A stretch of DNA of 64,000 nucleotides from assembly GCA_963920525.1 (NCBI GenBank), contig OY986436.1, forward strand, positions 182,589,496-182,653,495, given 5' to 3'. Position numbers and translations under genes: made by a program. The notes under the pieces were generated by a model, which made no database searches, had not been told where the DNA came from, and worked only from the letters and a program-made list of their open reading frames with translations. This stretch comes from Dichetophora obliterata (lineage: Eukaryota; Arthropoda; Insecta; Diptera; Sciomyzidae). Shown piece after piece: positions 16,648 through 50,000 of the stretch (position 1 is the first letter of the stretch; the number at the start of each line of letters is the position of its first letter).

Positions 16648-16703
16648 TTTAATTTATGAAATAATAATTTCTTATTGTGGAATCTTTACCCCACATCTGA
16701 GTT

Positions 16704-17849: not shown

Positions 17850-18718
17850 CAGTTGAGGTCAAAAGAATAGCAGTGCTTTTATATTCAGACATGTTTGGAT
17901 AAATAAAACTAGTCTACAAATTTTGGAGCCGGTAAGCCCATTATCATTCATATATGAACTTTTAACACTGGCTCTATATATGTACTTAGTTTCCTTCCTT
18001 ATTGTAAAATTTTCAAGATACAGGGTATTTTACGTTTTTGGTACTTGTTTGGTATTATTGATCTAGAAACTAAACTACTAACCATTAAATAAAAAAATAA
18101 TATTTTCTATTTCAGAAAAAATATCAACTTTTCCTTCAATATATCAACTACTCTCGTGTTATGTGCTTTAGCGGAGATAAAATTTTCAGATTATCCAACG
18201 AAATATTAGAAAATTTTGTATCTTTTATTTTAGAGGAGCTGTTATCATCTAAAGTAAGAATTTAATACAAAACTGTTGATTTAGTGTATTTTTACAAGAA
18301 AAACAGACATTTTAAATTTGGACGATTACAACTCCGCTTAAACAAAAGATACAAAATTTGTTGATATTTCAATGGATAATCCCAACATTTTTGCTCCACT
18401 ACCGCACATGACAAATAGTGGTTGCTATATTGATTAAACAGTTGATATCTTTTCAAAAAAACAAAATAAGATTTTTTATTTTATGGCGAGTAGTTCAGAT
18501 TCTAGATCAGTAATACTAAACACGTGCCAAAAACGAAAAACACCCTATATATGGAAAATTTTAAAATATAGGAGGAAACTGAGTCCAGATTTTGAATCAG
18601 CGTTGAAAGTACATATAGGAACGATAATGGGCTTACCGGATCCGAAATTAGTAGACAAATATTTTTTATCCAAACATGTCTGAATATAAGAGAACTGCTA
18701 TTATTTTGACCACAGCTG
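17850..18718. mobile_element. Tc1-type MITE, 869 bp
   Basis: The ends are inverted repeats of about 52 bp (CAGTTGAGGTCAAAAGAATA at left; CAGCTGTGGTCAAAATAATA inverted at right, then TATATTCAGACATGTTTGGAT on both). A TA lies on each side (17848-17849 and 18719-18720), as for Tc1/mariner. The interior resembles the core of the MITE at 27445-28122 although the ends differ. The frame at 18483-18683 spans the right inverted repeat and is not a gene. Confidence 0.85.
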
Positions 18719-18935
18719 TACGTCGTTCATTGAATACCGTTAATATATTTTCCAATGTCTTCCTTCCATTCTTATTCCGGAATGAAAAAAGAAACATACC
18801 CCCTTCTTTGTTGAATGGTTTAATTTAAAAAATCAAGTGAAAATATTTTTTATTATTTTTAGTTTAGTTTAACAAACATAAACATTTATTTTCATGTACG
18901 TATTGCAATCGATCAATCTTTATTATAAAGTAATG
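18719..18935. other. HYKK 3' flank
   Basis: A minus-strand AATAAA lies at 18924-18919, about 12 bases after the HYKK stop, and is the likely poly(A) signal. Nothing else is seen here. Confidence 0.5.
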
Positions 18936-20023
18936 CTATTTAATACTCTGAGTAAGATATTTATCTGCGGATACTTGCCATATCTCGTCGATTTTCGAGA
19001 ATTGTTCACGCCACAATTCTTCAATTAGTTTCCAACCGTATTCTTGCGTTACTAATACATAATCATTTGATTGGTCCTGTGAATAAGTATAAGCGCCCAT
19101 GACCAAACTCTGAGCTAGACGTGCTGCTACACAATATTTTAGATACTGCTTTTCCCTTGCAGAAATTGGATGTATTGAATTATAACCCGCTAGGAAAATA
19201 CCGCCACTCTCTAGTGATTGCGCTTGTAGCATTATATAGGCCATTGCTATGCCGACTTCGAAAATAATCGGTGATTTATTCGTATCGCCAAAATCAATTA
19301 TTCCCTCAATTTTATATTCACTATTTTGTGAACCTGGCACCAGATCGACAATTATATTATGTTCATTATAATCACCATGTATAATTTGGAACTCGAAACT
19401 TTCCAATTTCGTCAAAACATTTGCCTCAAATGATTCAATGATTTCTTCTATGATTGTTTTACGCACATGATCTTGCAGAACATAGATAAAATTTTTCAAA
19501 TTTGGAATTAATTGAAGCATCCATGTACTTCTGTGAGTTTCATAAGCTTCATGTTGGAAATTCTGTAAGAAACAATAAAGCGAGAAAATTCGTAAAAATA
19601 ATCAGAAATAATTTATTGATATTTGCGAACCTTTGCAGCACGATCAAACTTGGCAATGTATTCTCCGCTGTTGAATAAGAGATAGTTAGTCTTCGGTACC
19701 TCATGGAATATTTTTCCAGGTAAATATTGGAGAAGGCGCACTACATGATCGTCACCGTTAATATTCTCAACCGAATAGTATTTTCCAGTCACATTGAGGA
19801 TAGGTTTAGGACATCGTATATTCTGTTTTGCTGTGAAATAAGTTATTAAAATAAAATGCATACACATAGATGTTTGAAATAGAAATACAAATAATTACCC
19901 AAATAGATCATCAGTTGATTTTGTGCTTCGATAAAATTGATTTTCTTTGAATCCAATGTGTTCAAAATTTTCAATACATAACCATGTGGCCAGTGAGGTA
20001 CAATCAGTGGATTTTTCATATTT
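18936..20023 (-). CDS. HYKK: HYKK exons 2-4 (kinase core)
   Basis: Exon 2 20023-19899 (ATP-binding YVLKI region), exon 3 19830-19631 (VRLLQYLPG) and exon 4 19562-18936 (HGD and DFGD motifs, C-terminus). The introns are 68 bases each (19898-19831 and 19630-19563). The ATG codons inside exons 2 and 4 are internal. Codon phase at each junction rebuilds conserved family words. Confidence 0.9.
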
Positions 20024-23000: not shown

Positions 23001-26000
23001 CTGCATCAATCAGTCAAAGGGTTGCATTTTTTTACTAGTCTGTTGTTAAGTAGCAAATTATTTCTAAAAAAGTACTTATTTGAACACAAAAGCAGTTTTT
23101 CGAAGAGAAAAAAGGAGGAATACACAGAAAAGTAGGCAAAAAAGTATTCAGAAGAGTAACAAATGCTTGCATCGGTACTTCAATCAAAAAATCATGTGTG
23201 AGCAGAAAAAAATCAAAAATTTTAGAGCGAGTAAAAAATCGCGTATACTTCAATGATTTGACAAACGTGTGAACACCTCTTTATTACAGAAATCTAGTTA
23301 TATAAAATTCACCTCTTGGCAATGTTCGAAACTTAATAAGTGGCAGCCTTATGTTTGCCGTCATCTTCGAAAAAATTTGGCATCACTGTAGGTTGTTTTG
23401 ACAACTTGCGAACTTGAAGTCGCGCCAATTCTTATTTTATTTATTTGTTGATATTAAACGATAAGAGAATACTGTGTTTCGTAGTTAGCATCAATTGTCG
23501 ATATAAATAAAGTAATATATTTACAAATGCAATGTTGAAATGATAATTGCTACCCTTATTTATTAGTGTTGAATATTAAATGGGTATCACTGGCTTAATA
23601 CCCTTTCTTGAAAAAGCCTCGCGAAAGGTGCATCTCAAGGATTTGCGGGGCTCTACAGTTGCTGTGGATACGTATTGTTGGCTGCACAAAGGAGTCTTTT
23701 CTTGTGCTGAAAAACTGGTTCGTGGAGAGGAGACAGATGTTTATCTACAATATTGTCTCAAATATGTGCAGATGTTATTGTCATATGATATTAAGCCGAT
23801 TCTGGTATATGATGGTCGTCACCTACCGGCAAAAGCACTTACTGAAAAACGACGACGGGAAGCACGACAACAATCAAAGAAACGAGCAGCCGAGTTGCTA
23901 AGATTGGGACAGACAGATGAAGCGCGTTCGCACATGCGACGTTGTGTTGATGTAACGCATGAGATGGCATTGCGTCTTATACGTGAATGCAGAGATCTCA
24001 ACGTAGACTGCATCGTAGCGCCCTACGAGGCCGATGCACAAATGGCGTGGTTAAACAAAGTCGATTTGGCGCAATACGTCATAACAGAGGACTCGGATTT
24101 GACCCTTTTTGGGGCGCGTAAAGTAATTTTCAAGCTGGACTTGACGGGCGCTGGCTTGTTGGTAGAGTCTGACAAACTCTATTTAGCTATGGGTTGTCGC
24201 AAGGAGCGGTTTACTTTTGAAAAGTTTAGACGAATGTGTATTTTATCTGGCTGTGATTATTTGGACTCATTACCTGGTATTGGTTTGGCCAAAGCCTGTA
24301 AATTTGTACTTAAAACAGAAGAGAATGATATGTGGCGAGCTTTGAAGAAAATTCCACAGTATTTAAATATGCGCAACTTAGAGGTAAGAAGAAAGCAAAC
24401 CGATGCTCTTCATCAAAAATTAATTTACATAGAGTTTATTTTATTCCTATTTCTAGGTGGACGATGAGTACATTGAGAATTTTCTTAAAGCCGAAGCCAC
24501 TTTTAAGCACATGTTTATCTACAATCCGCTAAAACGTGCAATGGAACGTTTGCATGAACTGCACGAATTCGACACCGATGAACGTTATTGCTCTAATGCT
24601 GGCACGCTATTGGAAAATGATGAACAAGCTTTCCAGTTGGCTTTGGGTAACCTTAACCCATTCAGTCTTAAGGAATTAGACAATTGGCATCCAGACAGAA
24701 ATTTTGGCTTAAACCAAGCTACGCCAAAAAATGTCAAACGAGCCAAGCACAACAGTATTTGGCGAACCAACTTTGAAGCACACACAATTACAGCACTAAA
24801 GAAAAAGTTTGATCCATTTGAGTCAAAAACTTGTGGTATATACTTTCAGAAAGTAGATTTTATAAGTAAAACTATTGACGATGATGTCAAGGCAAACATT
24901 AAAGAAGAGCAAGACAAACCAGCGGAAGAAGATATATTTTCAATGTATAAAAATGAAGCCATTGGAGATGGCGCTACACTGCATTTAAAACGGAGGCGTC
25001 AGAGCGCAAGGTCGTCTAGTGATGAAGCGACTTTATCATCTTCACCTGCGTCTATGCGTGCACGTCATAATCCATTTGCTATTGCAGCTGAAAACAATAA
25101 TGATCATACAAGCTTAAATATATGCAAAAACAGCTCTTTACTCAAAATGTTAGGTTCAGAAAAGAATCTACTGAAGGACGAAACTGTTCGTACTTTGACG
25201 AGTGATTGTACAATGAAGCATTCCATATTCGCAGAAAATGAAAAGCTTAAACAAACATCCCATAAAATTGAGATAAAAAGTCGTTTTTTTGTCGAAAATG
25301 TAAAGAAAGCATCGAAGACGCAGATACTAACACAACTGCGCCAAACACCGCCTAAAGATCTGACGAATGAAATAAATATAATCGAAAGCCTTTCGCAACA
25401 AACACAAGAAACTCAATTGCAGTTATACAATCATTGTACACCTTCGCCGAAAAAGCGCAAAGCAATAACAAATGATAAAATATCCTACAAATTGCTAACA
25501 GAATATAAAGCCATGGACGAAAATATTGACAACGCAATTCTTGGCAAGGATGTTAAATCTTTAGAAGACATCGCCAGCCAAAAAAGTCAACAACAAACAA
25601 ATGACGAGAGCATTATTTTGTCTGATGATAATGATGAGGCAGATGACTTTGACTTAAAACCGTCTAAAAATAAAACTTTGGAAATATGCAAATTTCAACC
25701 ACTACGAGCACCACGTTTGGGGCTATCTAACCCCAAGAAAACTTCTGCCAAAAATAAAATTAATTCAAAGAGTGGTGCCAGTGGCAGCTTGCCGACGAAT
25801 CAAACGCGTTTAAGCATGTTTGGCTTTCAAAAGCGTCCAACACTTAAATAATTGTTATTATTGTTGCTTAATTAAGGTATAGTTATTAAAGTGATATTTT
25901 TTACAGTTCATAAATTTACACATTTGTTTAATAAAAATATGCGTCAAAGGGTTGCCAAGCTCAAGGTCTGCCATAAGAAAAATGACTAAGACTGAAACTA

Positions 26001-29000
26001 CCTCAACTATTTACAGATTAAGAAATATAAATAACTTATGAAATAAACTATTTAATGTATATTGAACAATATCTCGAACAATATCTCTTATATTTAAAAA
26101 CTATAAGTATTATATATTCAGCAGACCATTTGGTTCACGTGACTCTTAATAAAAAAAATCAGGGGCCGAATTACAGCATCCGTGATCGAGCAAAATTACG
26201 AAGGGCACGACGAGACAAGTGGCTATCAGTCTTATACAATTTTGCTCGATCACGAATGCTGTAATTCGGCTCCAGATTCGAAATCAGCTACCCTAAATAC
26301 TGTTAAACGACGTTTAAATTCTTAAAAATACATTTTACTAAGTGGCAATACGGTGGTAAAAATTTATGGGGCAACCCTAACTTTCATCTTAAATTTTAAA
26401 ACTGACATTAGATTCAAAATCAAATCCGTTGTCAGAATTTTAAAACTACAAGATTTCGCAAAAGTAAAAATAAATCTAGGTGGCAACTCTACCTGCCATC
26501 TTGAATTTTAAATTTTTACATCAATTCCGAAATCAGCTACCCCCCTAAAACTGCCAAGCACGGAGTCCACAGAACCCTTAACAGTCCTAATATGCTTAAG
26601 CTTTTTCTAAACAAGCTCATTGAAGTTTTTGCATACTTGCTTCAATGAAATACTTGCCTTCAATTTCAAGATTTTCAAGCTTTTAGTTTGTAAGTTAGCA
26701 TACTTGCAAGTCGCAAGCTGTCGGGGGCTTATTTATATTACAAGTTTATATCAAGTACAAGTTATACTTGATTGAAAATTATCAAGCTCAAGCAAGCTTG
26801 AACTTGTATTTTAAGCAAGTACTTGAAATAGACTTCAAGTAGGCTTGTGCTATTCTCTGATGTATATGTTATTCTTGTTGGCTTCACTGTTACCATTACA
26901 AGCAGGCGCGTACGCAGGGGGATTTTGGGGGTTAAACCGAACAAATAGAATAGAAAGCATTCAAAAACGATTTGTTCGGTTTGCTCTAAGGGGAGCTTAA
27001 GTGGAAATGACACTTTAAATCTTCCTCCTTATGAGGATCGTTTAAAACTAATAAAAATGCAATATTTAAATGAGAGAAGAAAGTCTGCGGATATCGTCTA
27101 TTTACACCAACTCATAACTGGTGTGTTCGATTCACCAGAACTCCTAAATCATGCAAATTTTAACACTAACCGAAACTCTATCAATTTAATTTACTTACCT
27201 TTTAGTAGAACAAATTTTATGGCTACTGCTCCTTTAAATCGCATGAGTAAATTTTTTAACAACTGTAACTTTTTTGATGTTAACTTACCGAAAGGTCAAC
27301 TCAAAAGTAGATTGAAAACTAATGTATGATTAGATCTATGTAAACGCATGGTTAGTTGTTATGTCTTGTGTTGTCCCTGAGCCCAACCCATATTATGGTG
27401 GGTAAATTTTTGTTACTTAAGATTATTTTGACCACTTTTATCTACAGTGATGTGCAAAAAAATAGGGACATCTGTATTTTTATATATAAAGCTACATGAA
27501 TTATATACAAGGTGCCCCAGATATAGCATTAATTCCCTCGGCTGGTGATTTTTCTTGATAAGGCGAATATAGCACTTTATGGAGTTTCCTCCCACATTGT
27601 AAAACTTTCAAGATACAGGGTGTTTTACGGTTTTGGTACGTGTTTAGTATTATTGATATATAATCTATGCTACTCACCATAAAATAAAAAATAATATTTT
27701 CTATTTTAGTAAAAATATCAACTTTTTCATCAGTATATCAACCACTTTCGTGTCATGTGCTGTAGCGCAGCTAAAATTTAGAGATTATCCAACGAAGTAT
27801 CAACAAATTTTGTATCTTTTCTTTTATCGGAGCTGTTATCATCCAAAATTAGAATGACACGAAAGTAGTCTTGATATATTGATGGAAAAGTTGATATTTT
27901 TTCTAAAATACAAAATATTATATTTTATTTTATGGTGAGTAGTAAAACAAACTGTATCTTGAAAGTTTTACAATGTGGGAGGAAACTCCATAAAATTTTA
28001 TTCTCGCCTTATCAGGAGGAATCACCACCCGAGGGAATTAATTCTATATTTGGGGCACCTCGTATATAATTCATGCAGCTTTGAATATAAAAAAAGGGGC
28101 CCTATTTATTTGCACATCACTGTATATGAGATATTTCAATGATATCAAGGTTGGTTCTTAAGATGATCTAATGCGGAGAAAGTGCGAAGAAGCTGTAGTA
28201 GCTGAACTCTCTTGTTATTGTGTTTTTTTTAACAACATGGCAGCCGTGTTTTTATGGTCACGACAAAGATCTTTAGATGACATTTCACATTGGAAAAAAA
28301 TAAGACTCAATTTAAAACATTTATTGTGAAAAGACTTTAATATATAGACTTAAAATTTTTTTAAGTGCACTGAGGGAATATGTGTTAAAATTTAATGAAA
28401 CTGTGTTCATATTATTTCATGAATTTGTTTTTGTGTTCATGAATTTGTTTTTGAAATAGATCTTGAAACAATTTCACTTAATTTAAACTCAAATGTTTGT
28501 ACAGTTAAATTTAAAAATAAAGTTTTTTCAAAACAATGTTTTTAAATATACTTTTATAGTAAACATTTACAATTTAAAAACATTTGCTTAAAAAAAAACT
28601 TTAAAACAAAAACTTGAGTATTAAAAACAAATATTTAAAAATTTTAAAACCGTAATAAATTAAACCGTAATTTGTCCAATGCCATTTTTTAAATTTTTTC
28701 GAGTTTTCGACGTCATATCCGTAATCAGCGACCCCCGGAACCCCTCGAATACCATATTTTACCTCCATTCGACGTAGTTTGCGTTTTATTGCGGCTTAAA
28801 ATATTGAAATATTTAAAATATTAAAGTAATAAATTAGTTTTTATTTCATCTCATGCTCATTATTTGTAAAACCAATTTAAAAAATATTTTCACACAATCA
28901 AATTTAAAATCGGGGTTATCTCAGCTTGGTCTCAATTCTCTGTCAATTATTGTCAAAGGTTCTACTGCACATAATTTTTCAATTCAATCTTAAATAGCGA

Positions 29001-32000
29001 CGTATTTTTTGTTATTGCAAAGAAATAATAAGAAAAAAATTATAAGAAAATAAATGAGTTTATAGTTGAAAATTTTGTATTTTAGAAACGCAAAAGTGTT
29101 TAATTTCTATTTTAAAATTTTTTGTTTAATTTAAAAGTATGCTTTTATTCGCAGTGTAAATAATATAGAAAACTAGCTTAAACCCGGCGCGTTGCTGCCG
29201 CGGCCCCGTTGCCAAACGCGAATAAAATGTTATCAGTGAAACTGTATATGTAAATTGTGGTCGAATACTCAATTCCATGGCTGTGCGACCTATAACTCAA
29301 AAGCTGTAGAATTTCTCAAATTTTGGTTGCATGGGAGGTGACACGCCCCCTTGTCCAACGCCATACAAAGCTATCAGTAAAACTGCATGTGTAAATTGAG
29401 TTCGAATGCTGAATTCCGAGGCTTTGTTTGCTTTGTTTGATTGACTCAAAAGCTATTCGATATCGCAAATTTGGGTTGTATGAGAGGTGCCACGCCCACT
29501 GTTAGTAGGAGGTTGAAATATACTTTACGACCTATTCTCATACCTACAAAATATACATACAAAATTTCATGAAAATCGGTCGAGCCGTTTCGGAGGAGTT
29601 CGATTACGCACCCCGTGACAGAAGAATTTTATATATTAGATATTCGAAAATAAATTTTTTGTTTGTTTTTAAATGCATCTTCTTCTCGATAGGTGACATA
29701 AAAAAGCATTCCTTTTCAGCCGGTGTCAAAATATTTTGGTTCCAATTTATCGGAAAATAAATCAAAGTGCATTTTAATAAGGGTACTTGTAGCTACAACT
29801 TTTACTAGAATTACTAAGTTTGGCTCAATAGGAAAAATTAAGCGCGACTTTTAAAAAAATGCTGTAATTTTCAACGCTTTTGATCCACGTATCGGGGGAA
29901 AATTGTAAACAAACCTTATAATAGTAGTTAAGCAAAGAGTAGTAAAGAGTTGTCAGTTCTGCACAGTTGCGTTTGTGCAGAAATTTGTGATTAGTGAGTG
30001 TTGGACGAATGTGGATGTGAAGGAAGGCGATAAAATCGAAATTTGTCGCCTGACTTTGATCAGCTGTGCTTAGCTGACGTTGCTTTGTGGTTTCGACGCT
30101 TAGCGAAGAATGATCTGTATGAGTGCGAAGAAATAGAAAATAGAAAGCGTGTGATGAAGCGAAAAGAAAATAGTTTGCTATTGTTTCTTTTCGCTTCGGT
30201 ATGACTTTTTTTGTTTCCTATAAGAATCTTGCACTCATATGAATGTTTACATTTTTTTAGCTGGATTGGATTTTGTAAATTGAATGAATTTACCAATTTC
30301 AATCTTTTTAAATGATGAGAACATTTTTATGCCCTCCTTTACCTATAAATTTATTTTAATTCTTGCAGGTAAGAAATGTTTTATTTGAAGCTACATTTTT
30401 TATCAATTTCCAGGTACTATTAAGAATTCAGCCAATTTTTTCATTCGAAGCTAAATTTTTTTCTCAATTTCTAGGTACTATATGAATTTAGGAATTTTTT
30501 TGATTTGAAGCAAAATTTTTTTGCTACATTGGATTTGGTAAATTAAATGAATTTACCAATTTCCAGCTATTTAAATTATGATAGTATTTTTATATGACCT
30601 TTATCTATAAATTTCTTTTAGATCTTGCAGGTACAATGTATTTACGAAATTTTTTAGCTACATTGCTTTTGGTAAATTAAATTAATTTACCAACTTCCAG
30701 CTATTTAAATGATGATAAATTGATTTACATGATTTCAATTTTTAGCTACATTGGATTTGGTAAATTAAAGGAATTTACCAATTTTCCTCTTTTCAAATTA
30801 TTATAAATTTTTAAGCTACACAGTATATACACATATATGAGATGTATATACTTTCTTTATGTAAAAATATATATAAATATATATTTCTGTCAATTGTTGC
30901 AGGTATTTAGAAAATTTTTATTTTATTTTAAACAAACTCAGAATGTTTACGAAAGTGTTTAAAATATTAAATACCATAAAAAAAGTTTGAAACATTAAAA
31001 TTTAAGTATTTTGTTGTGTTTTCAAATCCAAAATATAAAACTAATTGTGTTTGTTTAATAATCCAAAAATGGTATTAATATTTAAAGATATTTTTTCTCA
31101 TTTTAATTACCTTCTTTAAACAGTAATTGTTATGGTGACATAAAGTTTCTTGTTTTTTTTTATTTTGAGATTTTATTAAAATTTTGTATAAAATCTATTT
31201 GCTGAAGGTATTTAAAGATTTTTTAATTTTAGCAAACAGATTTTTCAATAAATTAATAAAATTAATCAACTAATAAAGGAAGCAAAAAATTCATCTTTTT
31301 ATGAACTATGAGTTTATTTATAGATTTTTTAATATATTAATAAAATTAATCAATTAATAAAGAAAGCAATAAATTCATCTTTTATTCATTTAATAAAGCA
31401 AAATTATGTCTGACATACATATTAATTTATTTTGCAGTTTTGGTTTTCAATTGTTGGTGTTTTAAAACTTACCTCATTTTATTCTTCTAATTCAATAAAA
31501 AATTAATACATTTTTGAACTGGCTCTTATTATTTAATATAATACGGTGCTTATTATGTAATATAACTAGCTGGAACCCGGCGCGTTGCTGCCACGCCCCC
31601 GTTGCCAAACTTCCATAAAATGTTATCAGTGAACCTGCATTGGGTTGATCTAAATTTGGGTTGAATGCGAGGTGCCATGCCCCTTTGTTTAACTCCCATA
31701 AAATTTTATTAGTGAAACGGCATGTGTAAATCGTGGTAGAATAATGAATTCTTAGGCTATAACTTCAAAGCTATTCGATATCGCAAATCGCATATTTGGG
31801 TTTTATGGGAGGTGACACGCCCCCTGAATGGCGTGTGTAAATTGTGGTAGAATACCGAATTCCGAGGCTGTGCGAGCTGTAACTGAAAAGCTATTCGATA
31901 TCGCAAATTATGGGAGGTTGCCACACCATACGTCCATAAAATGTTATCAGTAAAACGACATGTGCAAATTGTGCTCGAATACCGAGGCTGTGGAGGTCTA

Positions 32001-35000
32001 TAACTCCAAAGCTATTCGATATCGCAAATTCTGGTTGCAAGGGAGGAGCCACGCCCCTTGTACAACGCCCATAAAATGTTATCAGTAAAACAGCACGTGT
32101 AAATTGTCGTCGAATACTGAATTCCGGGGCTGTGTGAATTATAACGCAAAAGCTATTCAAAATATTAAATGTGGGTTTTAAGGGAGGTGCCACGCTCCCT
32201 TTCCCAACGCCCATAAAATTTTATCAGTAAAACGGCACGTGTAAATTGTGGTCGAAAACCCAATTCCATGGCTGTGCGAACTATAACTCAAAAGCTATTC
32301 GATATCTCAAATTTGGGTTGTATGGGAGGTGCCACGCCCCCTTGTCCAACACCATAAAATGTTATCAGTTAAACTTAATGTGTAAATTGGGTTCGAATAT
32401 TAAATTCCGAGCCTGTGCGGTCTGTAACTAAAAAGCTATTCGATATCGCAAATTTGGGTTGTATGAGAGTGCCACGCCCCCTTGTCCAACGCCCATTTTT
32501 CTTTCTGTAAAAAACGTTTGTAGACTATTACAAACATTTTAAAAAAGTTAGCCAAATTGGCGCAGGCGTTCTGCGATTTTAGGTATATATAAAAAAGTGG
32601 GCGTAAAAGTGGGAGTGGTCAATTTTTCTTCAGTAAAAACTTAAAATGGATTACTACAAACATTTAAAAAATAAATTAGCCAAATCGGTGTAGCCGTTTT
32701 CCGATTTTAGATAAATAAAAAAAAGTGGGCGCAAAGTGGGCGTGGTCAATTTTTCTTTCCGTAAAAACCTAAGTTGGACTATTACGAACATTTTAAAAAA
32801 AAAATTATCCAAATCGGTTCAGCCGTTCTCAACTGATGCAATTACCAACGAACGACATTTGATTTTTATTTATATAGATATCTTAAAACCTAGAATGAAA
32901 TCTTATTACATAATGTAATAATTTAAAACTAAATGAAAATCTTATTACATAATGTAATAATTTAAACCTAAATGAAAATCTTATTACAGAATGTAATAAC
33001 TTAAAACTAAATTGAAAACTTATTACATCGCTTGTTTTCTTCAATAACGTTATAATCCGAAAAACACTTATTCGACTTTGTGATTACATCACTTTAATAA
33101 ATTTTTATTTTACTTATATTGTAAAATATATGTAAATGTATATACAATTTAAATATTGTAAATACATTTCTGTAAATATTTACTGTAAATATTGTATATA
33201 CTTCTTTTTATAATGTAAATATTGTACATATTGTAATTATATTGTAATTATATTGTAAATGTATTTTACAATTTAAATATTGTAAATACATTTCTGTAAA
33301 TATTGTATATACTTAATTTTATAATGTATATATTGCACTTCCTTTAATTTCTGCTTAAGACTTAAAACTCTTGTGCTGAAAAATCAGTTTTTTTTAATTG
33401 TGACGTTATTGTAAAAACGAGAGATATGTTAACATAGAAGTTCTATTACATTTTGTCAAAAATATATATTTTTGTATATTTTGAAACATTAATAAAATGT
33501 CAAAAAATGTGTCTGGTAAACGCCCCTATTAAATATTTAAGCTGTGGGGTCAGCTGTGTATTTTCTCAGTTGTGTACTAATGATAAATAATACTCAGCTT
33601 AAATCATGATTAGTACGGATTTTTCTTAATACTCAGTATTTTTGAAAGTTTCGAGTATTAAATTTTGTTATTGGTAAATGACTACGTTTTGCATAACCAT
33701 GATTTTTTGCTGTATACTAGCCGCTTATATAACTTGCATTCGCTGCTGTACCATGCGAGGCTAATTCGATCATAATATTTCCAAATCTTTCTTATGGCAT
33801 CGCTTACAAACGCTTTTTTCCTTTTATAAAAATGACCGTTTTCAACTTTGGGCTCGGTAGACTCATTTATAATTTTCAAAATTTTCTATCTACTATTTCA
33901 GGTTATTAAATTCTTTCCTTCTTTCAAACACAAGAAATTCTTACTTGTCTTTTTTTCCCGGAACAACAAAAGTTTTTTGTATATACAGTAAATATTGTAA
34001 ATACATTTGTGAAAATATTTACTGTAAATATTGTAAAAATTAAATTAAAAAATATAAATAAACTGGCCATTTCAGCCCTTGGAAGGACTTTGACCTAGCT
34101 TCTATTGATCAATTGTGTTGTGCGTGTTGTTAAATGTTTGATCACAAATGACCGAGAACTGGACCTACGTGCTTAATGCCGACTCCGAACGGCTTATGCC
34201 CTCAAGAAGCTTTACATGGCAATTTTTACTCTCTGAGGTTTGCCATTGTCTGCAGAGAGGTGACGACCGAACAGAAAAATTAATTCAATTGAAAAAACTT
34301 TCTGTCTGAGCTGGAATTGAACCCGGGCTACCGCAGTTCTTTAGCTTAGGAGCCACGCACTCTACCCACTAGGCTACGACCGCCACCAAAATTATATGAT
34401 GTAAATATTGTACATAAATTTTTGAGGTTACAATAACCGTTTATTAAATTACTTTATGTAATTTACATATCTGTAAATACTGTAAATATTGGAAGTTTAT
34501 TAAATACTTTTACTTTTCTAGTTTTAAGTTGTAAATATTTACTTTATTATATTACTTAGGTTAGTTAAATACATTCAAAGTGTTTGCCTTAGTTGATAAT
34601 TAATTACATTATGTAATAAGTTTTCAATTTAGTTTTAAGTTATTACATTCTGTAATAAGATTTTCATTTAGGTTTAAATTATTACATTATGTAATAAGAT
34701 TTTCATTTAGTTTTAAATTATTACATTATGTAATAAGATTTCATTCTAGGTTTTAAGATATTATATTATATAATAAGCACCGTATTATATTAAATAATAA
34801 GAGCCAGTTTAAAAATGTATTAATTTTTTATTGAATTAGAAGAATAAAATGAGGTAAGTTTTAAAACACCAACAATTGAAAACCAAAACTGCAAAATAAA
34901 TTAATATGTATGTCAGACATAATTTTGCTTTATTAAATGAATAAAAGATGAATTTATTGCTTTCTTTATTAATTGATTAATTTTATTAATATATTAAAAA

Positions 35001-38000
35001 ATCTATAAATAAACTCATAGTTCATAAAAAGATGAATTTATTGCTTCCTTTATTAGTTGATTAATTTTATTAATTTATTGAAAAATCTGTTTGCTAAAAT
35101 TAAAAAATCTTTAAATACCTTCAGCAAATAGATTTTATACAAAATTTTAATAAAATCTCAAAATAAAAAAAAACAAGAAACTTTATGTCACCATAACAAT
35201 TACTGTTTAAAGAAGGTAATTAAAATGAGAAAAAATATCTTTAAATATTAATACCATTTTTGGATTATTAAACAAACACAATTAGTTTTATATTTTGGAT
35301 TTGAAAACACAACAAAATACTTAAATTTTAATGTTTCAAACTTTTTTTATGGTATTTAATATTTTAAACACTTTCGTAAACATTCTGAGTTTGTTTAAAA
35401 TAAAATAAAAATTTTCTAAATACCTGCAACAATTGACAGAAATTTATATATATATTTTTACATAAAGAAAGTATATACATCTCATATATGTGTATATACT
35501 GTGTAGCTTAAAAATTTATAATAATTTGAAAAGAGGAAAATTGGTAAATTCCTTTAATTTACCAAATCCAATGTAGCTAAAAATTGAAATCATGTAAATC
35601 AATTTATCATCATTTAAATAGCTGGAAGTTGGTAAATTAATTTAATTTACCAAAAGCAATGTAGCTAAAAAATTTCGTAAATACATTGTACCTGCAAGAT
35701 CTAAAAGAAATTTATAGATAAAGGTCATATAAAAATACTATCATAATTTAAATAGCTGGAAATTGGTAAATTCATTTAATTTACCAAATCCAATGTAGCA
35801 AAAAAATTTTGCTTCAAATCAAAAAAATTCCTAAATTCATATAGTACCTAGAAATTGAGAAAAAAATTTAGCTTCGAATGAAAAAATTGGCTGAATTCTT
35901 AATAGTACCTGGAAATTGATAAAAAATGTAGCTTCAAATAAAACATTTCTTACCTGCAAGAATTAAAATAAATTTATAGGTAAAGGAGGGCATAAAAATG
36001 TTCTCATCATTTAAAAAGATTGAAATTGGTAAATTCATTCAATTTACAAAATCCAATCCAGCTAAAAAAATGTAAACATTCATATGAGTGCAAGATTCTT
36101 ATAGGAAACAAAAAAAGTCATACCGAAGCGAAAAGAAACAATAGCAAACTATTTTCTTTTCGCTTCATCACACGCTTTCTATTTTCTATTTCTTCGCACT
36201 CATACAGATCATTCTTCGCTAAGCGTCGAAACCACAAAGCAACGTCAGCTAAGCACAGCTGATCAAAGTCAGGCGACAAATTTCGATTTTATCGCCTTCC
36301 TTCACATCCACATTCGTCCAACACTCACTAATCACAAATTTCTGCACAAACGCAACTGTGCAGAACTGACAACTCTTTACTACTCTTTGTCTTTACTACT
36401 CTTTGAGTTAAGGTTGTCGTAATCTTATTAATATCATGGTGCAACTAGACAAGGTAGTGTTGGGGCTGAACGTGCTCTCTTTCATGGTGACCATAACTGC
36501 CAAACTCGCCATTTTGATATTTTTGGCTATTTTTGCCTTCTCATTACATTCTCATTGGTTGCAGATTTGGTATGAGCTGTTAACTTCGTTTAGACAGTTT
36601 CGGTCACCGGCTTTCCGCCCTAACACTACCTTGTCTAGTTTTGCCATGGTTAATATGCACTTTGAATTTTTTTGTTTGACCTGTTTTATATTGGGCAAGA
36701 CTTAAAAGCAAGTTTTTTGACGTGATAAATGAATACATGACGTAACCAAGTATATCTTAAATACAATGTAGGTGCGAGGCCTCCAACACCTATGCACACT
36801 TTGAATTACATTTGTTCGGGCACGGACGCTAAACCACTGATGACACCTATCTTACACAGTAAACCGTTTTTGCAGAAATCTTATAAAACTTTAGGTGTTT
36901 TTTTTTTGTGCTCTGATTTATATTGCAAAATTAAATAAATGTTTTGTGGACGGACTGTCAAAAGCAAACATACCGACAGACGCATAATGTGGAATTTAGG
37001 TAAATAGACGGACATGTAAAATGCAGACGAATAGTTAAAACAAAAATATTTTTAAGCTGGATCAAAAACTGACATGAATTTGCAGTAAGGTGGAGCGAAA
37101 ACTATATGTTGCAAATATAATATAATTATATGTTGCCCGGCCGCGGTAAAGTTGAGAATAAATTACATGAATTAAATTGCTAGTTTTAGATCAAGTAAGT
37201 TCTTAAGAAGGCAATAACAGCAACAAGAAATCTGTATAGAGCAGCGCTGGGCGCCCCATAGCTCACTGAGCGCTCTCTAAGCGTAACTTTTCACATGTCC
37301 ACAAAGCTCACAACAGAAGAAAATATAATTCAGTCGTTTGCTGACGGTGATGCTGTGAGGACCTATGTCACAAATTTTATGTACACTCTTAAAAAACAAA
37401 CTTTTTGATTTGCACTTTCATAATACTTGTGCATATATTTTTTTATTTCGTAGAATTTCATATTATCCGTGTAAGATTATTTGAATTATTAATTCATATT
37501 ATTTATCGCGTATGAAAATAAGAAGGATTTTTTCCGTCGACAAAACGTGGATCCATCACTATACACCAGAGTCAAAAGAACAGTCGAAATAGTGGTCTTC
37601 ACCGACCAAACGTGCTCCGAAGAAGGCGAAGACGGTGCTATCGGCCGGAAAGGTTATGGCGACAGTATTTTGGGATAAACGTGGTATAATCCACATCGAT
37701 TACCTTCCACCGAAAGGAACGATCACTGGCGAATACTATGCAGCCAAATTGTACCGTTTCGACGACGCTTTGAAAGAGAAACGCCCCCATTTGGCGAGGA
37801 AAAAGTGCGTTTCCATCAAGACAATGCGCGTGTTCACATACACCCAGCTCCCATGGGAAAATTCTATGAATTCAAGTGCGAATTGCTTCCTCATCCAGCA
37901 TATTCTCCAGATTTGGCCCTCTCCGACTACTTTCTCTTTCCAAACTTGAAAAAATGGCTTGGCGGAAAGAGATTCACCACCAGAGAGGAGCTTATCACTG

Positions 38001-41000
38001 AAATAGGGGCCTATTTTGAGGACCTTTCGAAAACGTATTTTTCGGATGGGTTCAAAAAAATAGGCGGAACGTTGGACGAAGTGTTACAAGCCAGAGACTA
38101 TAAATACTATAGACCTTGCAACTGAAAGACTCGGAACAATATGAGAAATTTGCTGTGACCAGCCAAGAGACCCAGCGAGTAGCAAACCGAGCGAATACAA
38201 TCACTTGCAGGAATTTATGTTGCAAGCACAACATGTATGCTGCAGAAAACTCCTTCCTTCTTTTTTTATGTTGCTAGAAACCTCTGCTTCTACATACATT
38301 TTTTAGATTTCGGAGCAGAGAAACCTGGGGCCGAATTACAGCATCCGTGATCGAGCAAAATTACGAAGGGCACGACGAGACAAGTGCCTATCAATCTTGT
38401 ACAATTTTGCTCGATCACGAATGCTGTAGTTCGGCCCCTGGCTTTTGCTTAAATTTGTTTTTGCTTGATTTGTTATTGCTGCATTGGACTTTTTTGACTG
38501 CTATTTTTTTGCTACGATAGGATTTTATTCACGTTTTGGTAGCATTTCGTTGATGGTCAGAAATAAATCATATTTTGCGATTTTGTCGATCTGAGGCAAA
38601 GGCGTTTTAGATAAATCGATATATCTTTTTTATTTCTGATCGGACTTAAATGCTCCTAAGGACAACATTTAAGAAAATTGATCAATCTTTCAAATGACAT
38701 CAAAATTAAATTTCACAAAAATTAATTCAATTATTTATTAACTTTTTTAAACAGATTTAAAACAAAAACTCTCAGGCGCATACCCAGAAAAAATTTCGGG
38801 TGTTTTTAATTTTTTTGTTTTTGTTTAGTCTTATTCCAATTTTTTTTTATATAATATATAATAATAGTATATATTTTAAAGACCCCAATAGGGTCTATTT
38901 TGAGACAACGTAAATCAGTCAATTTAAACGCGTTTTTCATTGTAAGTTTTATTTTGAGGGAAAAGTATTGAAATTTTGAAAAAATTCCAGTTACATGACC
39001 CATTATTAATTTCAAAGTTTAATACCACGCCACCAAAAGGCGCTATAATTTTTTAAGCCTTAACTACTACTGTAAGGTTTGGTTACAATTTCCCCCCGCA
39101 ATGGGGATCAAAAGCGTTGAAAATTACAGCATTTTTTTAAAAGTTGCGCTTAATTTTTCCTATTGCGCCAAACTTAATAATTCTACTAAAGATTGTAGCT
39201 ACAAATACCCTTATTAAAATACACTTTAATTTTTTTGTTTCCTATAAATTGGGACCAAAATATCTTGACGCCGGCTGAAAAGTATTACTTTTTTTATGTC
39301 ACCTATCGAGAAGAAGATGCGTTTAAAAACAAACAAAACATTTATTTTGGAATATTTTTGTTATTATTTACACTGTAAATTTTCAACTATAATCTCATTT
39401 ATTTTTTTATAAATTTGTCTTGTTATTTCTTTGTAATAACAAAAAAATGGGTCGAATGGGTCTGGCAGTGATTGCAGATAAGACGAAATACTTGGTGTCA
39501 ACAAACAAACAATCCCAGCGTCTTGGAACCCACGTTACAGTTGACAATACCTCCTTCGAGGTTGTGAAGGACTTTGTTTATCTTGGATCCAGCATAAACT
39601 CAACCAACTACATCAGCATTGAGATCAAACGAAGAATAACTCTTGCCAACAGGTGTTACTTTGGGCTCAGTAGGCAATTGAGAAGCAGAGCCCTCTCTCG
39701 ACAAACGAAAATCACGCTCTATAAATCGCTCATCATGCCCGTCCTACTTTATGCATCACAAACCTGGACGCTGAGCAGTTCAGATGAAAAGACTTTAGGA
39801 GCACTCGAGAGAAAGATTCTTCGTAAGATCTACGGACCAATCTGCGTCAATGGCGAGCACCGAATACGGTGGAATGATGAACTGTATGAGCTGTACGCTG
39901 ACATCGACATAGTCAAGCGCATTAAAATCGAGCGGCTTTGCTGGCTTGGTCATGTTCAGCGCATGAAAGACGATGCTCCAGTGAAGAAAACATTCGATTC
40001 GGTACCCAGCGGCGGTCAACGCAGAAGAGGACGACCGCATCTTCGTTGCAAAGACCAAGTAGAGGACAACCTGACGAGGCTTGGCATTTCCAACTGGCGC
40101 CAGCAAGCGAAAGACAGAAATGGCTGGCGCAAATTCTTAGATGAGGCCAAGACCGACATACGATTGTAGCGCCAACTAAGTAAGTAAGTAATAACAAAAA
40201 ATACGTCTCTATCTGAGATTATTTTGAATAATTGCCAGATAATTGAGGCCAAGCTGAGAAAAACCCCGATTTTACATTTGATTGTGTGAAAATATTTTTT
40301 AAATTGGTTTTACAAATAATTAACATTAGATGTAATTAACATAATTAACATAAGATGTAACATTAGAACTAATTTATTACTTAAATGTTTAAAATATTTA
40401 AAAATTTTGAGCCGCAATAAACCCAAACTTCATCGAATATAGTTAAAATATGGTATTCGAGGGGTTCCTGGGGTCGCTTATTACGAGTATGTCGTCGAAA
40501 ACTCGAAAAAATTAAAAATATAGAATCGAAAAAATGGCGGTTTAATTTTATTGTTTTTAATTTAAGAACGATATTTTAAAATTATGTTTTAAAATATTTG
40601 TTTTCAATACTAAACTTATTTTTAAATTTTAACTGTAAATGTTTACTATAAAAGTATGTTAAAAGCATTGTTTAGAAAAAAACTTTTATTTTTAATTGAA
40701 CTGTACAAACATTTGAGTTTAAGTTAAATGAAATTTTTTCAAGCTCTATTTCAAAACCAAATACATTTAATATGAACACAGTTCCATTAAATTTTAACAC
40801 ATATTCACTCAGTGCACTAAAAAAAATTTAAGTCTATATATTGATTATAGCCTTTTCACAATAAACGTTTTAAATTGAGTCTTTTTATTTTTTCTAATGT
40901 GAAATGTCATCTAAAGATCTTTGTCGTGGCCATAAACACACAACGGCTACCGGTTGTGCTGAGTGTTTCTCTCGAAGCTCATTAAAATTATTTCATTTCG

Positions 41001-44000
41001 GGTGGGCGGGGGGTGTCTAACCCCCAAAATTGCTCCTGCGTACGCGCCTGAAAACTCTAATCTGCTGCACAGGGCTAAATACATTTAAATTGCATTTTTT
41101 AAAAAAAGACCATGCATTTTGTTTTCTTGTTTTTTATTTGTAACTAAATTGTGATTCGGCCAATTTGTTGTTGAGAAAAAATATATATTATTATTATTTC
41201 TTTTTTTAAGCAAAATCTAGGCTGACAAGCAAATTTTTAGATGGAATTATTGGATAAATATTTATTAAATAAAATTATATCAAAATTGTTTTTTATAAAA
41301 TTCTTCTTTAATTGTTTTAAATAGATTTTAAAAACTTTCCGTTAATGCGTTTATATGATGTAATGAAAACTATTCGATCATAATTTGTTGCACTGGGTAA
41401 AATGTGCTCATAACAATTTTTTGTTTCTTCTTTTATTTAATTGTGATTAAATTGTGATTCGACCCATTTACAAGAACAAAAAAGATATTATTATTGTTTT
41501 TTTTAAGCATGATGTAGGCTTATAAGCAAATTGTAAGCTCGAATTATTTATTAAATTGTGAAAAAGGAATACATACAGTGATGTGCGATGAAATAGAGCC
41601 AGTGCTATAAAAATTATTTAAATCGAAAAATCTAAGGAAACTTTGCATATTTAATTTTTTCTTTTAGTAGGTAAAAAAAATAATTCATATTAGTAAATTA
41701 ACTAATTAACCTAAGTGTAAAACATAAACGAAAAAATTCAATATTCAATGATATGTCCTCTTTCAGCTGTGACTTGAAATAGAGCCAGAAGTAGTTACTT
41801 AATTTTAGCCATGACCTGTGATTAGAAAATTTGAAATTTCATGATATAATCAATAGAAATGATTGAAATATAATTATTTCTACCTCAATATTTGGTGGAG
41901 TATCCATTGTTTTTGATAACTGCTGAGAAACGCCTAGGCATCGAATCCACTAGTTTTTGGCACTTAGTAGCTGGAATTTTCTCGCATGCGTCCTTGATTA
42001 ACCTCCAAAGATAATTTTTGTTGGCTGGATGTATTTCTAAGAGCCACTTTAACATCTCGAGATAAATTTTTGATAGGCTTAAGGTCCGGAGACTGTGGCG
42101 ACCAGCTTAAAACTTCGATGTGCTTTGGGTCGTTATCCTGCTGAAACAACCATCGAAGCTGCATATTAAACTCTGCGTAAGGCTACATGGTTTCACTCAA
42201 AATCCTAGTGTATTGCAAAACATCCATCTTTCCCTCGATGCGAAATAAGGGACCTGTGTCATTATATGAGAAACACCCCCAAACCATTATACTCAAACCG
42301 CCATGTTTAACCGTTTTTATAGTGTGCTGAGGGAGGAATTCGGTATTGGAGGGTCTTCTCACAGAAAGGCTGCCTCGGTCTGAGTTAAATAAATTAACTT
42401 TGGCTTCATCTGACCAAAGAATATTTCGCCATTTGCTCGTTGGCCAATCAGCATGATCCTTTGCGAATTGTAATCGCTTGCGGACATTAACTTTGGTCAA
42501 AAATGGTACCTTCCGACCAGCTTTAGCCTTCAATCCGTTTTTAATTAAAAGTTTTGGAATCGTTGAAGTTACCACATCCAAGGAATATTGTTTTTTGAGA
42601 GCGGAAGAGGTCACAAACGGATCTTTTTTACTTATTTTGGGTTGTTTCCTTTTGGTTTTGGTTTTTTTGTGTAAACTTTAATGGGTTCTCAACCATTTTC
42701 TTTGAACTATACTGGCTATTTCCTTTTGACTTTTAACTTGTTTACGCAAATTTTTAAAAGTTTTTCGGTTTTCAGGACTGCAATGCCTGGCTCTTTCAAT
42801 TTTTAGAACAAATTGCTTGAAATACTTAAATTTATTCTAAAATCTTAAAACTGAAAACTCTTACTCACGTTTTGTACTAAAATGTTATTAAAAAAGATCT
42901 TTTAAAATTAAAGTTTTTTTAATTACATTGGTTGGCTCTATTTTAACGCACACTTTTAAAGCAATAATATCACAGTTTCACAGATTTGCGAAAAATGAAC
43001 GCGCAATTGTACTCAAAAGTAACTGTACAATTTTCATGGAATAACTGGTTTTTAAGCTACAGTTGGTTCACAGCATGCTATGTTGTTATAAAAAAAATTT
43101 TAATTAAGAACTATCATCAGCAAGTACGTGCCTCTATTTCATCGCACATCACTGTATGTATATGAAAACCAAAATAACTCAAATGGTTTTAAGATTTTTG
43201 TAATATTGTTAACTTCAAAATGAATTATTAAAAAATAAGTTTTGAAGTTTACAAAATTTTACAACATAAATGAAATTTTTAATAGGGCTATTCCCGATTA
43301 CGGGCAAATAGCGTGGCATCGTGGCATTTGCAAAATATGATGGCAAATATTTTCAACACAACAACAAAATGTACAGATTTGCATTTGCCCGACTGTGTCA
43401 AATTTGCAACACTAAATTCGCATTGCATACAGTCGAGCATGGGCAAAACTTATTTGCCGATCAATCAGCTGTCACATTTTAACCAAACGCCGCCAATAAA
43501 ACAAAATTAACAGACTCTGATATGGAACTCACTTTGATAAATAATACACTTTGATAAATAATAATGAAAAACACCACAAATACTGTTCGTGCTGTTTTTT
43601 TTTCCTCCAAAACAGCTGTGAGTTTTGTTTGCAACAGTGTTCTAAAAAGTGTGCTCACTGTTGATGGCAAATATTTGGTAGGGCATACAATTGCAAAGCT
43701 ATTTGCCCGTAACTGGGAATAGCCCTAGTGTGTTTTTTCTTTTTCCTTTGAAAATTTTTATTCAAAAATTTAATTTTTTTCCTTTGCTTTTAAATTTTAT
43801 TTCAACAGACTGATTTAATTGTGATTAAATCCGATCCGATTCCCCGGGAAAAATTATTCAGAATCGGGCTGATAATTTGAGTGAATCTACGTAAAAAATA
43901 GAAATTAAAGTTTTTCTATATGACCTTGTTATTTATTATGTTGACTTTATATGATTTAAATACAAATTCTAAATGCATGATTTAAACTATCAAATATTTA

Positions 44001-47000: not shown

Positions 47001-50000
47001 AAAAGAAAAATATCTCACGGTTTCAATCGTAAAAAACTAAGATTTGGGGATTTTGTTCAGATGGTTACTGTCGGTAACTGTACAAAAAATGGGCGTGGTC
47101 GTTATATAAATACGCCTACTTTTTCGAAATCATGGCAATTCCGGTGTTCTGCACATTTTTACAGTGAAACTTGCTCTTTATGTGCTCCAAGAGACAAACA
47201 CAATTTATAAATGTTTTCACGCCCACTTTTAACGCCCACAAATCAATATCTATATATATATAAAGCAAAACGATGTGTGTCTGGCTGTGTGATGTCTATA
47301 AACTCCAAAACTACTGAACCGATTGACCTGAAATTTTAGCAGTCGATTTGTTTCAGGTACGAGATGGTTGAGGAAAAAAATTTGCCGCACCCCCCTTTTA
47401 CCGCCCCCAAATCAATAAAAATGTTATATTTCAGTCGGTTTGGGTCGTATATGGCTAAAATTTTGTAATTTAGTATGTACGGTTACTGTCGACAACTGTC
47501 CTAAAAATGGGTTTCCACGCCCCCTTTTACCGCCCACAAATAAATGAAAATGGTTTATTTCAGACGGCTTTGGTCGTATAAGACTTAAATTTGTTACTTT
47601 GGTTTGTGAAGTTACTGACAGTAACTGTACGAAAAATTGGTTTTCACGCCCCCTTTTGCGCCCACAAATCAGTGAAAATGCTATATTTCATGCAGTTTTG
47701 GCCGTATGAGACTAACATATGATACTTAAGTTTGTATGGTTACTTTCGGCAATTGTACTAAAAAAGGACGTCAGCGCTATATAGCCACACCCACTTTTTA
47801 AGAAACCATCAAAATTGACTACTGGGTCGATTGAGCTAAAATGTTGGCTTAGTTTGTACGGTTACTGTTAGCAACTGTACTAAAAATTGGTCTCCACGCC
47901 CCCCTTTTACCGCCCACAAACCAATGAAAACGTTTTATTTCAACGGTTTGGGTCGTATTAGACAAAAATTTTGTAATTCAGTACATATGGTTACTCTCGG
48001 CAAGTGCACTAAAAATAGGCCTGCCCTACTTTAGTTAAACTCACTTTTCGGGGAGTTAGCGTCCAGTGAAGTAAAGTGCGCCAGGCTTAACCTAAATTGA
48101 GGTGAAATTTGGGCAGTCGATTTGTTTCGATTACGAGATGGCTCAAGGGAAACATTTTACCGCACCCCTTTTTACCGCTTGCAAAACAACAAAAATAGAC
48201 TAAAATGTGGTTATTTAGTGCACATGGCTACTTTCGGCAGCTGTACTGAAAATGGTGAATATATTTGACATTTCTTGACATTTTTGTGTATAGCAGTAAG
48301 GCGGTCTGTGGCAGAACAACGTTTGCCTAGGAGATAGATTGTTCCTGTGAGGTTTGGTAACGTTTGGACGAGGGGGCGTGGTTCCTCCCATACAAGCCAA
48401 ATTTGCGCTATCGACCACAAACCAAATAAGGGATATATATCAGACGGTTTCGATCGTAAAAACTAAGATATTATCATTTTGTTCAGATGGTAACTGTCAG
48501 TAACTGTACAAAAATAACTTTTTCGTCGCAATATATATACGCTCACTTTTTCGAAATCATGGCAATTCCGGAGTTCTACACATTTTTATACTGAAACTTG
48601 CTGTGTAGGTGCTCCAAAAGGCAGTCACGATACATAAATGTTTTCACGCCCACTTTTAGCACCCACAAATCAATATCTGTACATATAAAAATGAATCGTG
48701 ATTTGTTCGGATGCTTAAAACTTGAAAACGACTAGACCAAATAGGATACTTCCTTCTACTGGTTTGTTCGTAACTGCTACGCAAAGGTTTAGGAAAAAAG
48801 TAATGCCACACCCCTTTTATCGCCCACAAATCAATAAAAATGCTATATTTAAGAAGGTTTTGGTCGTATTAAATTAAAATTTGGTAAATAAGTTCTTATG
48901 ATGACTGTCACTAACTTTAATAAAAACGGGCGTTGTCACACTTCATCTACGCCTACTTTTGGAAATATCACAATACTCCGAAACTATTGGTCCGATTGAG
49001 CTCAAATTTTGTAAGTGGCTTTGCTTTGAGTACGAGATGGTTTAAGAAGAAATGCCACTCCTTCTTTTACCTCCCATTAATATAAAAACAATTTGTGTTA
49101 TCGAATAGCGTTATGGGTTGCACAGCTTAGAAATTCGGTATTCGACCACAATTTAGACGTACCGTTTCAGTGATGAAATTTTATGGGAGTTGGACAAGGG
49201 GGAGGGGCACCTCTCATACAACCCAAATTGGTGATATCGAATGGCTTTGAATTTATAGGAATTCAGCTTTGGAATTCAGTTTTTGACCTCAATTTACACA
49301 TGCAGTTTCAATGATTTTTTTTTATGGGCGTTGGACAGGGAGGCCTGACATCTCCCTTACATCCCAAATTTGCAATATCGAATTGCTTTGAAGTTATAGG
49401 TTGACAGCGTAAGAAATCGGTATTCGACCTAAATTTATACATGCACTTTCATTTCTTACATTTTATGGGCGTAGGGAAAAGGGGAGTGACACTTCCCATA
49501 CAACCCAACTTTGTGCTATCAAATAGCTTTGGAGTTATAGGTCGCACAGCATCGGAATTCAGTATTTGACCAAAATTTACGCATGCAGATTTACTGATAA
49601 AATTTTTAAGAGTTTGTCGGGGGGCGTGGCACCTCCAACTTAACCCAAATTTGCGATATCGAATAGCTTTGGAGTTATAGGTAACTCAGCCTCGGAATTC
49701 AGTATTCGACCTCAATTTACACATGCAGTTTCATTGGTTAAATTTTATGGGCGTAAGGAAAAGGGCAGTGGCACCTCCCATACAACCTAAATTTGTGCTA
49801 TCGAATAGTTTTGGAGATATATGTCGCACAGTTTTGGAATTCGGTATTCAACCTCCATGTACACATGCAGTTTAATTGATTACATTCTATGAGCGGTGAT
49901 CAAGAGGGCGTGGCACTTCCTATACAACCCTAATTTGTTATATCGAATGGCTTGTGGATATAGGTCGCACAGTCTCGGAATTCAGTATTCTACCTCAATT

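What the first reader, a model, noticed from the sequence alone, without database searches (positions are those of the whole stretch)
26903..41050. Giant foldback-like palindrome inside the intron
Inverted outer ends, two-part arms and a 1.57-kb centre make a structure of about 14 kb (about 1.78-kb inner arms, 1.2-kb outer arms after removing insertions). It has no transposase and no flanking duplication. It does not match a standard class I can name.
Basis: seen in the sequence. Interest (0 to 1): 0.75.

Follow-up and report, generated by a model that had tools for sequence, protein, structure and literature searches.

The report
Nested transposons posing as one palindrome
The 14-kb "giant palindrome" in a fly intron is several unrelated jumping genes stacked together: two old copies of one element that happen to face each other, and inside one of them a young self-folding (foldback) relative of the P element that is present in many copies in the genome.

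Summary
The inverted arms are real, but they are not one element. (1) The inner 6.47 kb (29933-36405) is a complete foldback transposon: 1.78-kb arms differing by five substitutions, ends CAAAGAGTAGTAAAGAGTTG, and a 7-bp target duplication AGTTAAG hidden by a 16-bp repeat at the right end. The genome has 443 exact 20-bp ends. Three of 20 fetched loci of the family carry P-superfamily transposase pieces between the arms, so this is a non-autonomous, Galileo-like P-superfamily foldback. (2) The "outer arms" are two separate, older copies of another family facing each other. The right copy (38773-41050) is complete, with its own 8-bp duplication AAAACTCT; the left copy (26903-29932, resuming at 36413) is interrupted by the foldback and has no recognisable far end. 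A relative is a plain 2.9-kb element with an 8-bp duplication, probably a non-autonomous hAT. (3) The stack lies in a ~31-kb intron of a hydroxylysine-kinase gene. Of 100 listed places with the outer end (235 in all), only the window has facing ends within 15 kb. On C1, C2 and most of C3, 41 of 72 foldback end pairs lack matching flanks (at least four explained), but no reciprocal, inversion-type pair was found. New member of a known kind.

The parts
29926..29932 (.). left 7-bp target duplication AGTTAAG of the inner foldback
29933..31563 (+). left arm of the inner foldback, outer part
   Evidence: end CAAAGAGTAGTAAAGAGTTG
31564..32868 (+). 1.3-kb insert with ~141-bp and ~128-bp tandem repeats in the left arm (edges good to about 5 bp); all or part of it sits at the same arm position in L040, L043, L044 and L045, so it travels with a sub-lineage
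32869..33028 (+). left arm of the inner foldback, inner part (39-bp tandem repeats)
33029..34610 (.). centre of the inner foldback; lies in either orientation in other copies and is partly absorbed into the arms of some
34611..36389 (-). right arm of the inner foldback
36390..36405 (-). 16-bp tandem duplication of the terminus, which hid the target duplication
36406..36412 (.). right 7-bp target duplication AGTTAAG of the inner foldback
26903..29932 (+). left copy of the older outer family (probable non-autonomous hAT), from its terminus to the inner insertion
36413..36437 (+). continuation of the left outer copy after the inner insertion (36406-36434 matches C4 copy 1768-1796 at 96.6%; C6 copy to 36437 at 93.8%); its far end was not found
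26948..27442 (+). 3' fragment of a LINE-type retrotransposon inside the left outer copy; the 39 other scored genome matches all begin at 26948
27445..28122 (.). short element with inverted repeats and TA on both sides (Tc1/mariner type, assigned by eye)
29172..29652 (+). ~480-bp repeat related to the 1.3-kb insert, inside the left outer copy (edges approximate)
38765..38772 (.). 8-bp target duplication AAAACTCT of the right outer copy
38773..41050 (-). right copy of the older outer family, both ends present
41051..41058 (.). 8-bp target duplication AAAACTCT of the right outer copy
39449..40180 (+). 3' fragment of another LINE (C-terminal part of a reverse-transcriptase protein) inserted in the right outer copy (edges by eye)
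18939..20022 (-). 3' exons of the hydroxylysine-kinase gene whose intron holds the stack
51398..51712 (-). 5' exon of the hydroxylysine-kinase gene

Best explanation
A stack of independent transposons. Two old copies (about 14% apart) of one high-copy family with 8-bp target duplications came to lie facing each other. Much later a non-autonomous P-superfamily foldback transposon inserted into the left copy and duplicated the 7 bp AGTTAAG. The foldback most likely moves by cut-and-paste when a P-type transposase made elsewhere in the genome binds its long inverted ends. Shown here: the separate families, their copies, the target duplications, and transposase pieces in three relatives. Inferred: the source of transposase, the chemistry, and recent or present activity.
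For: Inner part: 40 near-full matches to its first 588 bp (the 40 scored of 758 first-look candidates; two are the window's own), 98-100% identical, mostly +/- pairs. 398 exact 30-bp ends, reversed-pattern control 0. Exact 7-bp duplications in 10 of 20 examined elements, window included, and in 31 of 72 adjacent end pairs on C1, C2 and C3 up to 192.4 Mb, against 5000 shuffles with mean 0.51 and maximum 4. P-type transposase domains in frames of L052 and L056 (PF21787, PF21788, in L056 also PF21789); the L056 frame matches the solved P transposase 6p5a at E 4.4e-13; L053 by tblastn. L052 has both ends and an exact 7-bp duplication. Outer part: the C4 copy 55-2951 has both ends, 8-bp duplication CACTCTAG, and no long terminal arms; the window's right copy has AAAACTCT. 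The C4 copy reads straight through the point where the inner element sits, a paralogous empty site.
Against: Homology between the outer arms stops within a base or two of the inner insertion point. The right copy lacks about 250-320 bp there relative to the C4 and C6 copies, but the shared point is unexplained. The left outer copy has no second end, so its own duplication could not be tested; a second end was not found for the C6 copy either. About half of the inner family's end pairs lack matching flanks. No intact transposase was seen, and a whole-genome search for one did not complete.
Confidence: 0.93

Rival explanations
1. One giant 14-kb long-arm transposon whose inner arms were recently homogenised by gene conversion while the outer arms drifted.
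For: Both outer ends match, and the outer arms meet the inner boundary almost exactly.
Against: The inner element occurs alone with its own 7-bp duplications. The right outer copy has its own 8-bp duplication. An outer relative is a 2.9-kb element without long terminal arms. No other of the 100 listed outer ends shows the layout (135 of 235 places were not listed).
Confidence: 0.02
2. Assembly artefact or a local inverted duplication.
For: Near-identical inverted arms are a classic place for mis-assembly, and no reads could be examined here.
Against: The same inverted layout recurs at many loci with different flanks, and exact target duplications far above the shuffled control would not arise from mis-assembly.
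Confidence: 0.02
3. The inner element is a Mutator-superfamily Foldback rather than a P-superfamily element.
For: Most foldback elements are held to be Mutator-type, with long arms and tandem repeats (passages of PMC4079207 and PMC5225508).
Against: 7-bp duplications instead of 8-10 bp, and P-type transposase pieces between arms of the same family.
Confidence: 0.03
4. The two outer copies face each other because of a past local inversion or recombination between copies, not because of two independent insertions.
For: The left copy lacks its far end and a testable duplication.
Against: The right copy is complete with its own 8-bp duplication, so it looks like an ordinary insertion.
Confidence: 0.1

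Closest known systems
Galileo (P-superfamily foldback of Drosophila)
   Same: Long inverted arms with internal tandem repeats, P-type transposase, 7-bp duplications, a palindromic target preference, a middle part found in either orientation, arms that take in neighbouring sequence or other transposons, and copies without matching flanks (passages of PMC2775673, PMC3573991, PMC4168063).
   Different: Arms reach 2.47 kb here (L052) against 1.26 kb for the longest reported in D. mojavensis. The 10 of 20 examined copies without matching flanks still have arms 98.8-99.96% identical, whereas chimeric Galileo copies are described as having divergent ones. Terminal sequence and transposase clade were not compared with Galileo itself.
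Foldback-type elements assigned to Mutator (FB, Tetris)
   Same: Long arms with tandem repeats and a non-coding middle (passages of PMC4079207).
   Different: 8-10-bp duplications for Tetris, 7 bp here; P-type transposase pieces here.
hAT-type non-autonomous elements (for the outer family)
   Same: 8-bp duplications; termini that begin CAG and end CTG (the hAT terminus rule is recalled, from no call).
   Different: No hAT transposase was sought. In the window's right copy the only frames of 110 aa or more lie in the inserted LINE fragment; the coding capacity of other copies was not examined.

Membership tests
P superfamily (inner element) | P-type transposase (TNP-like RNase H and GTP-binding domains) | tested here: met
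   Met for relatives, not for the window copy: L052 and L056 by Pfam, L053 by tblastn; 3 of the 20 loci L040-L059. In L056 the RNase H piece and the next piece lie on opposite strands, so that gene is rearranged.
P superfamily (inner element) | 7-8-bp target duplication | tested here: met
   7 bp exactly, in 10 of 20 elements and 31 of 72 end pairs
Galileo | long, internally repetitive inverted arms | tested here: met
Galileo | target consensus GTANTAC (from PMC4168063 passage) | tested here: inconclusive
   Of 31 duplications 31 have T at position 2 or A at position 6, and 20 have both; positions 1, 3, 5 and 7 agree only in part
Galileo | terminal ~40 bp and transposase group with Galileo | not tested
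   No Galileo sequence was held; the nearest protein was an uncharacterised Bactrocera dorsalis protein at 40% identity
Galileo | N-terminal THAP domain in the transposase | tested here: inconclusive
   The five frames scanned, all partial, gave no THAP hit; no complete transposase was obtained
Foldback / Mutator | 8-10-bp target duplication | tested here: not met
   7 bp
hAT (outer family) | 8-bp target duplication | tested here: met
   A second end was found in 2 of 4 copies examined (window right, C4); both have exact 8-bp duplications. None was found for the window left and C6 copies.
hAT (outer family) | hAT transposase in a related autonomous copy | not tested
   no search made

The most novel reading that the evidence does not exclude
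A Galileo-like, P-superfamily foldback has been active recently outside Drosophila. Its arms are kept near-identical within each copy by hairpin-mediated repair or gene conversion, and about half of its copies have been through ectopic exchange, which would make it a rearrangement engine for this 1.3-Gb fly genome.
Probability: 0.25. Interest if true: 0.6.

Novelty: new member of a known kind. Interest (0 to 1): 0.35.

Why it matters
It removes a supposed new class of giant palindrome and replaces it with three ordinary, separately datable events. Galileo of Drosophila makes natural inversions (PMC2775673, passages). A second such family with about 443 exact ends gives an independent system in which to ask whether foldback arms drive rearrangement and how the two arms of one copy stay alike.

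Tried and rejected
One 14-kb element: rejected on separate target duplications and separate families.

TIR extension as in Galileo (older outer arms, newly recruited inner arms of one element): considered after reading passages of PMC3573991; rejected because the inner element has its own ends and 7-bp duplication.

Inversion by exchange between foldback copies: tested among 41 end pairs without matching flanks on C1, C2 and C3 up to 192.4 Mb; no reciprocal pair found. The test sees only ends with an exact 20-bp terminus, and C4 and the smaller contigs were not tested because the lists stop at 100 rows.

Post-insertion gene conversion between arms: in the first 640 bp of 18 copies, private changes were found on both arms 8 times and on one arm 16 times; within-copy differences were 0-5 and the between-copy median 0.94%. 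This does not prove conversion; young sub-lineages with already equal arms would look the same.

tRNA and Rfam scans of the window: 0 hits. Phage tblastn with the L056 frame: no match, as expected for a fly gene. Papers on Galileo in calyptrate flies: one search found 20 papers with 3 of 4 terms; 8 were listed, and those 8 do not contain the word Galileo.

The 20 elements leave out L041 (chain of copies) and L056 (left end outside the fetched stretch). Of the 41 unmatched pairs at least four are explained: the window (16-bp terminal repeat) and three whose matching flank lies at a further end (C1 68.25 Mb, C1 198.92 Mb, C3 91.02 Mb).
Full report
Setting. The window is G000:C2:182589496-182653495 of a 1.31-Gb genome in 76 contigs. 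Host proteins point to a fly: a LINE frame is 66% identical to a Zeugodacus cucurbitae protein and the hydroxylysine-kinase gene 64-68% to Glossina proteins. The gene is on the minus strand, with matches at 51712-51398 and 20022-18939, so the stretch 26903-41050 lies in an intron of about 31 kb. The same intron holds an XPG-domain nuclease frame at 23580-24467 on the other strand (Exo1/tosca is a name from recall).

Observation. Self-alignment finds four inverted blocks: 28232-28951 with 40957-40227 (79.6%), 29640-29932 with 39355-39059 (89.2%), 29923-31565 with 36400-34761 (99.5%), and 32866-33028 with 34773-34611 (98.2%). With the 1.3-kb insert in the left arm left out, the inner arms differ at five substitutions, a 4-column gap and an 8-column gap at the insert edge over 1791 columns. 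The outer arms are 85.8% identical over 1094 ungapped columns. The two sets of arms therefore differ greatly in divergence.

Inner element. A genome search with the first 588 bp returned 40 near-full matches (those scored of 758 first-look candidates; two are the window's own) at 98-100% identity, mostly as facing pairs 1.8-7 kb apart. I fetched 20 loci. They share the end CAAAGAGTAGTAAAGAGTTG. Arms run up to 2.47 kb (L052), the centre occurs in both orientations, and in several copies parts of the centre belong to the arms. The 1.3-kb tandem-repeat insert of the window's left arm sits, whole or in part, at the same arm position in L040, L043, L044 and L045, so it spreads with a sub-lineage. 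In L041 and L051 a copy lies inside another copy of the family at CTTTTTA.

Target duplications. Of 20 elements examined (L041 and L056 left out), 10 have exact 7-bp duplications, the window included once its 16-bp terminal repeat (36390-36405) is counted as part of the element. Genome-wide there are 398 exact 30-bp ends, with 0 for the reversed pattern, and 443 exact 20-bp ends: 175 with G, 109 with A, 53 with T and 106 with C seven bases out. For C1, C2 and C3 up to 192.4 Mb the lists are complete: 252 ends, 72 adjacent facing pairs within 12 kb, 31 with an exact 7-bp duplication; 5000 shuffles gave a mean of 0.51 and a maximum of 4 (one search had one mistyped coordinate). The duplications have T at position 2 or A at position 6 in 31 of 31 and both in 20 of 31. 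This palindromic leaning resembles Galileo's GTANTAC (passage of PMC4168063) without matching it fully.

Copies without matching flanks. 41 of the 72 pairs lack a duplication; at least four of these are explained (the window, and three with a matching flank at a further end). Among the 20 examined elements the 10 without matching flanks still have arms 98.8-99.96% identical. In Galileo, chimeric copies with unmatched flanks have divergent arms (passage of PMC3573991). I found no reciprocal pair of the kind that marks an inversion. Whether these copies arose by exchange followed by arm homogenisation, or by loss or change of one flank, is open.

Transposase. The window copy has none. Frames in L052 and L056 match P-superfamily domains PF21787 and PF21788, L056 also PF21789; the L056 frame matches the solved P transposase 6p5a (E 4.4e-13) and an uncharacterised Bactrocera dorsalis protein (40%); L053 matches too. 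These are 3 of 20 loci, all partial; in L056 two pieces lie on opposite strands. L052 has both ends and an exact duplication, so the transposase pieces do lie inside the family. The inner element is therefore a non-autonomous P-superfamily foldback that works like Galileo; membership of the Galileo clade was not tested.

Outer copies. The right outer end has at least 39 other matches at 81-88% (40 scored of 1465 first-look candidates), nearly all beginning at or within two bases of the terminus. Two copies were fetched. The C4 copy runs from 55 to 2951 with both ends and the 8-bp duplication CACTCTAG and has no long terminal arms. Mapped on the window, the right "outer arm" is a whole element, 38773-41050 on the minus strand, with the duplication AAAACTCT on both sides. 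The left "outer arm" is a second copy in the other direction, 26903-29932. It resumes after the foldback at 36413: 36406-36434 matches C4 copy 1768-1796 at 96.6%, and the C4 copy runs through this point uninterrupted. The far end of the left copy was not found. The right copy lacks about 250-320 bp just at this point relative to the C4 and C6 copies, which is why the arms seem to end where the foldback begins. That coincidence is unexplained.

Layout elsewhere. The exact outer end occurs at 235 places; of the 100 listed, only the window has two facing ends within 15 kb. Other insertions in the stack are a LINE fragment from 26948 (39 other scored genome matches begin at the same base), a short inverted-repeat element 27445-28122 with TA flanks (by eye) and a second LINE fragment about 39449-40180.

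Order of events (inferred). The two outer copies came first, the other insertions in them at unknown times, and the foldback last: its arms differ by about 0.3%. With a Drosophila neutral rate from recall (about 1.1% per million years per lineage) that would be of the order of 0.1 million years, if the arms were identical on arrival and not converted since.

Verdict. The finding is real as sequence but composite. Its interesting part is the inner family, a new member of a known kind. Papers were seen as follows: passages of PMC4079207, PMC5225508, PMC2775673, PMC3688188 and PMC4168063; the first of seven parts and passages of PMC3573991; abstract and outline of PMC10990002.

Noticed in passing
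11833-16984: Direct repeats 11833-12116 and 16702-16984 (95.5%) flank gag/pol-like frames on the minus strand (12234-16653): an LTR retrotransposon with ~284-bp LTRs, described by eye from the frames.
   Followed up: no
1918-4905: A 995-aa minus-strand frame that reads like a LINE endonuclease/reverse-transcriptase protein (by eye).
   Followed up: no
61241-62206: Mariner-type transposase frame of 321 aa (Pfam Transposase_1, HTH_48).
   Followed up: partly
26160-26274 and 38327-38441: Two copies, about 94% alike, of a short palindromic element starting CAGGGGCCGAATTACAGCATCCGTGATCGAGC, one outside and one inside the stack.
   Followed up: no
29172-29652, 31564-32868, 49110-50056: ~141-bp tandem-repeat units with the motif GGTGCCACGCCCC, in three places of the window on both strands.
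   Followed up: partly
17848-18720: An 870-bp inverted-repeat element (78% self-complementary) related to the short element at 27583-27855.
   Followed up: no
39058/39059: The right outer copy lacks about 250-320 bp exactly where the foldback inserted in the left copy; possibly an old excision scar at the same target, not tested.
   Followed up: partly
34060-34390: A stretch in the foldback centre that looks like a tRNA-headed SINE on the minus strand (by eye; ARAGORN and Rfam gave no hit).
   Followed up: no
G000:C2:202853858-202860786 and 203000392-203007321: Two foldback copies 146 kb apart with the same pair of unmatched flanks (ATCTTAT / CTGATGC): probably a segmental duplication.
   Followed up: no
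G000:C2:90806182-90806700: Four foldback ends in a row, spaced 164 bp: a small tandem array of the terminus.
   Followed up: no
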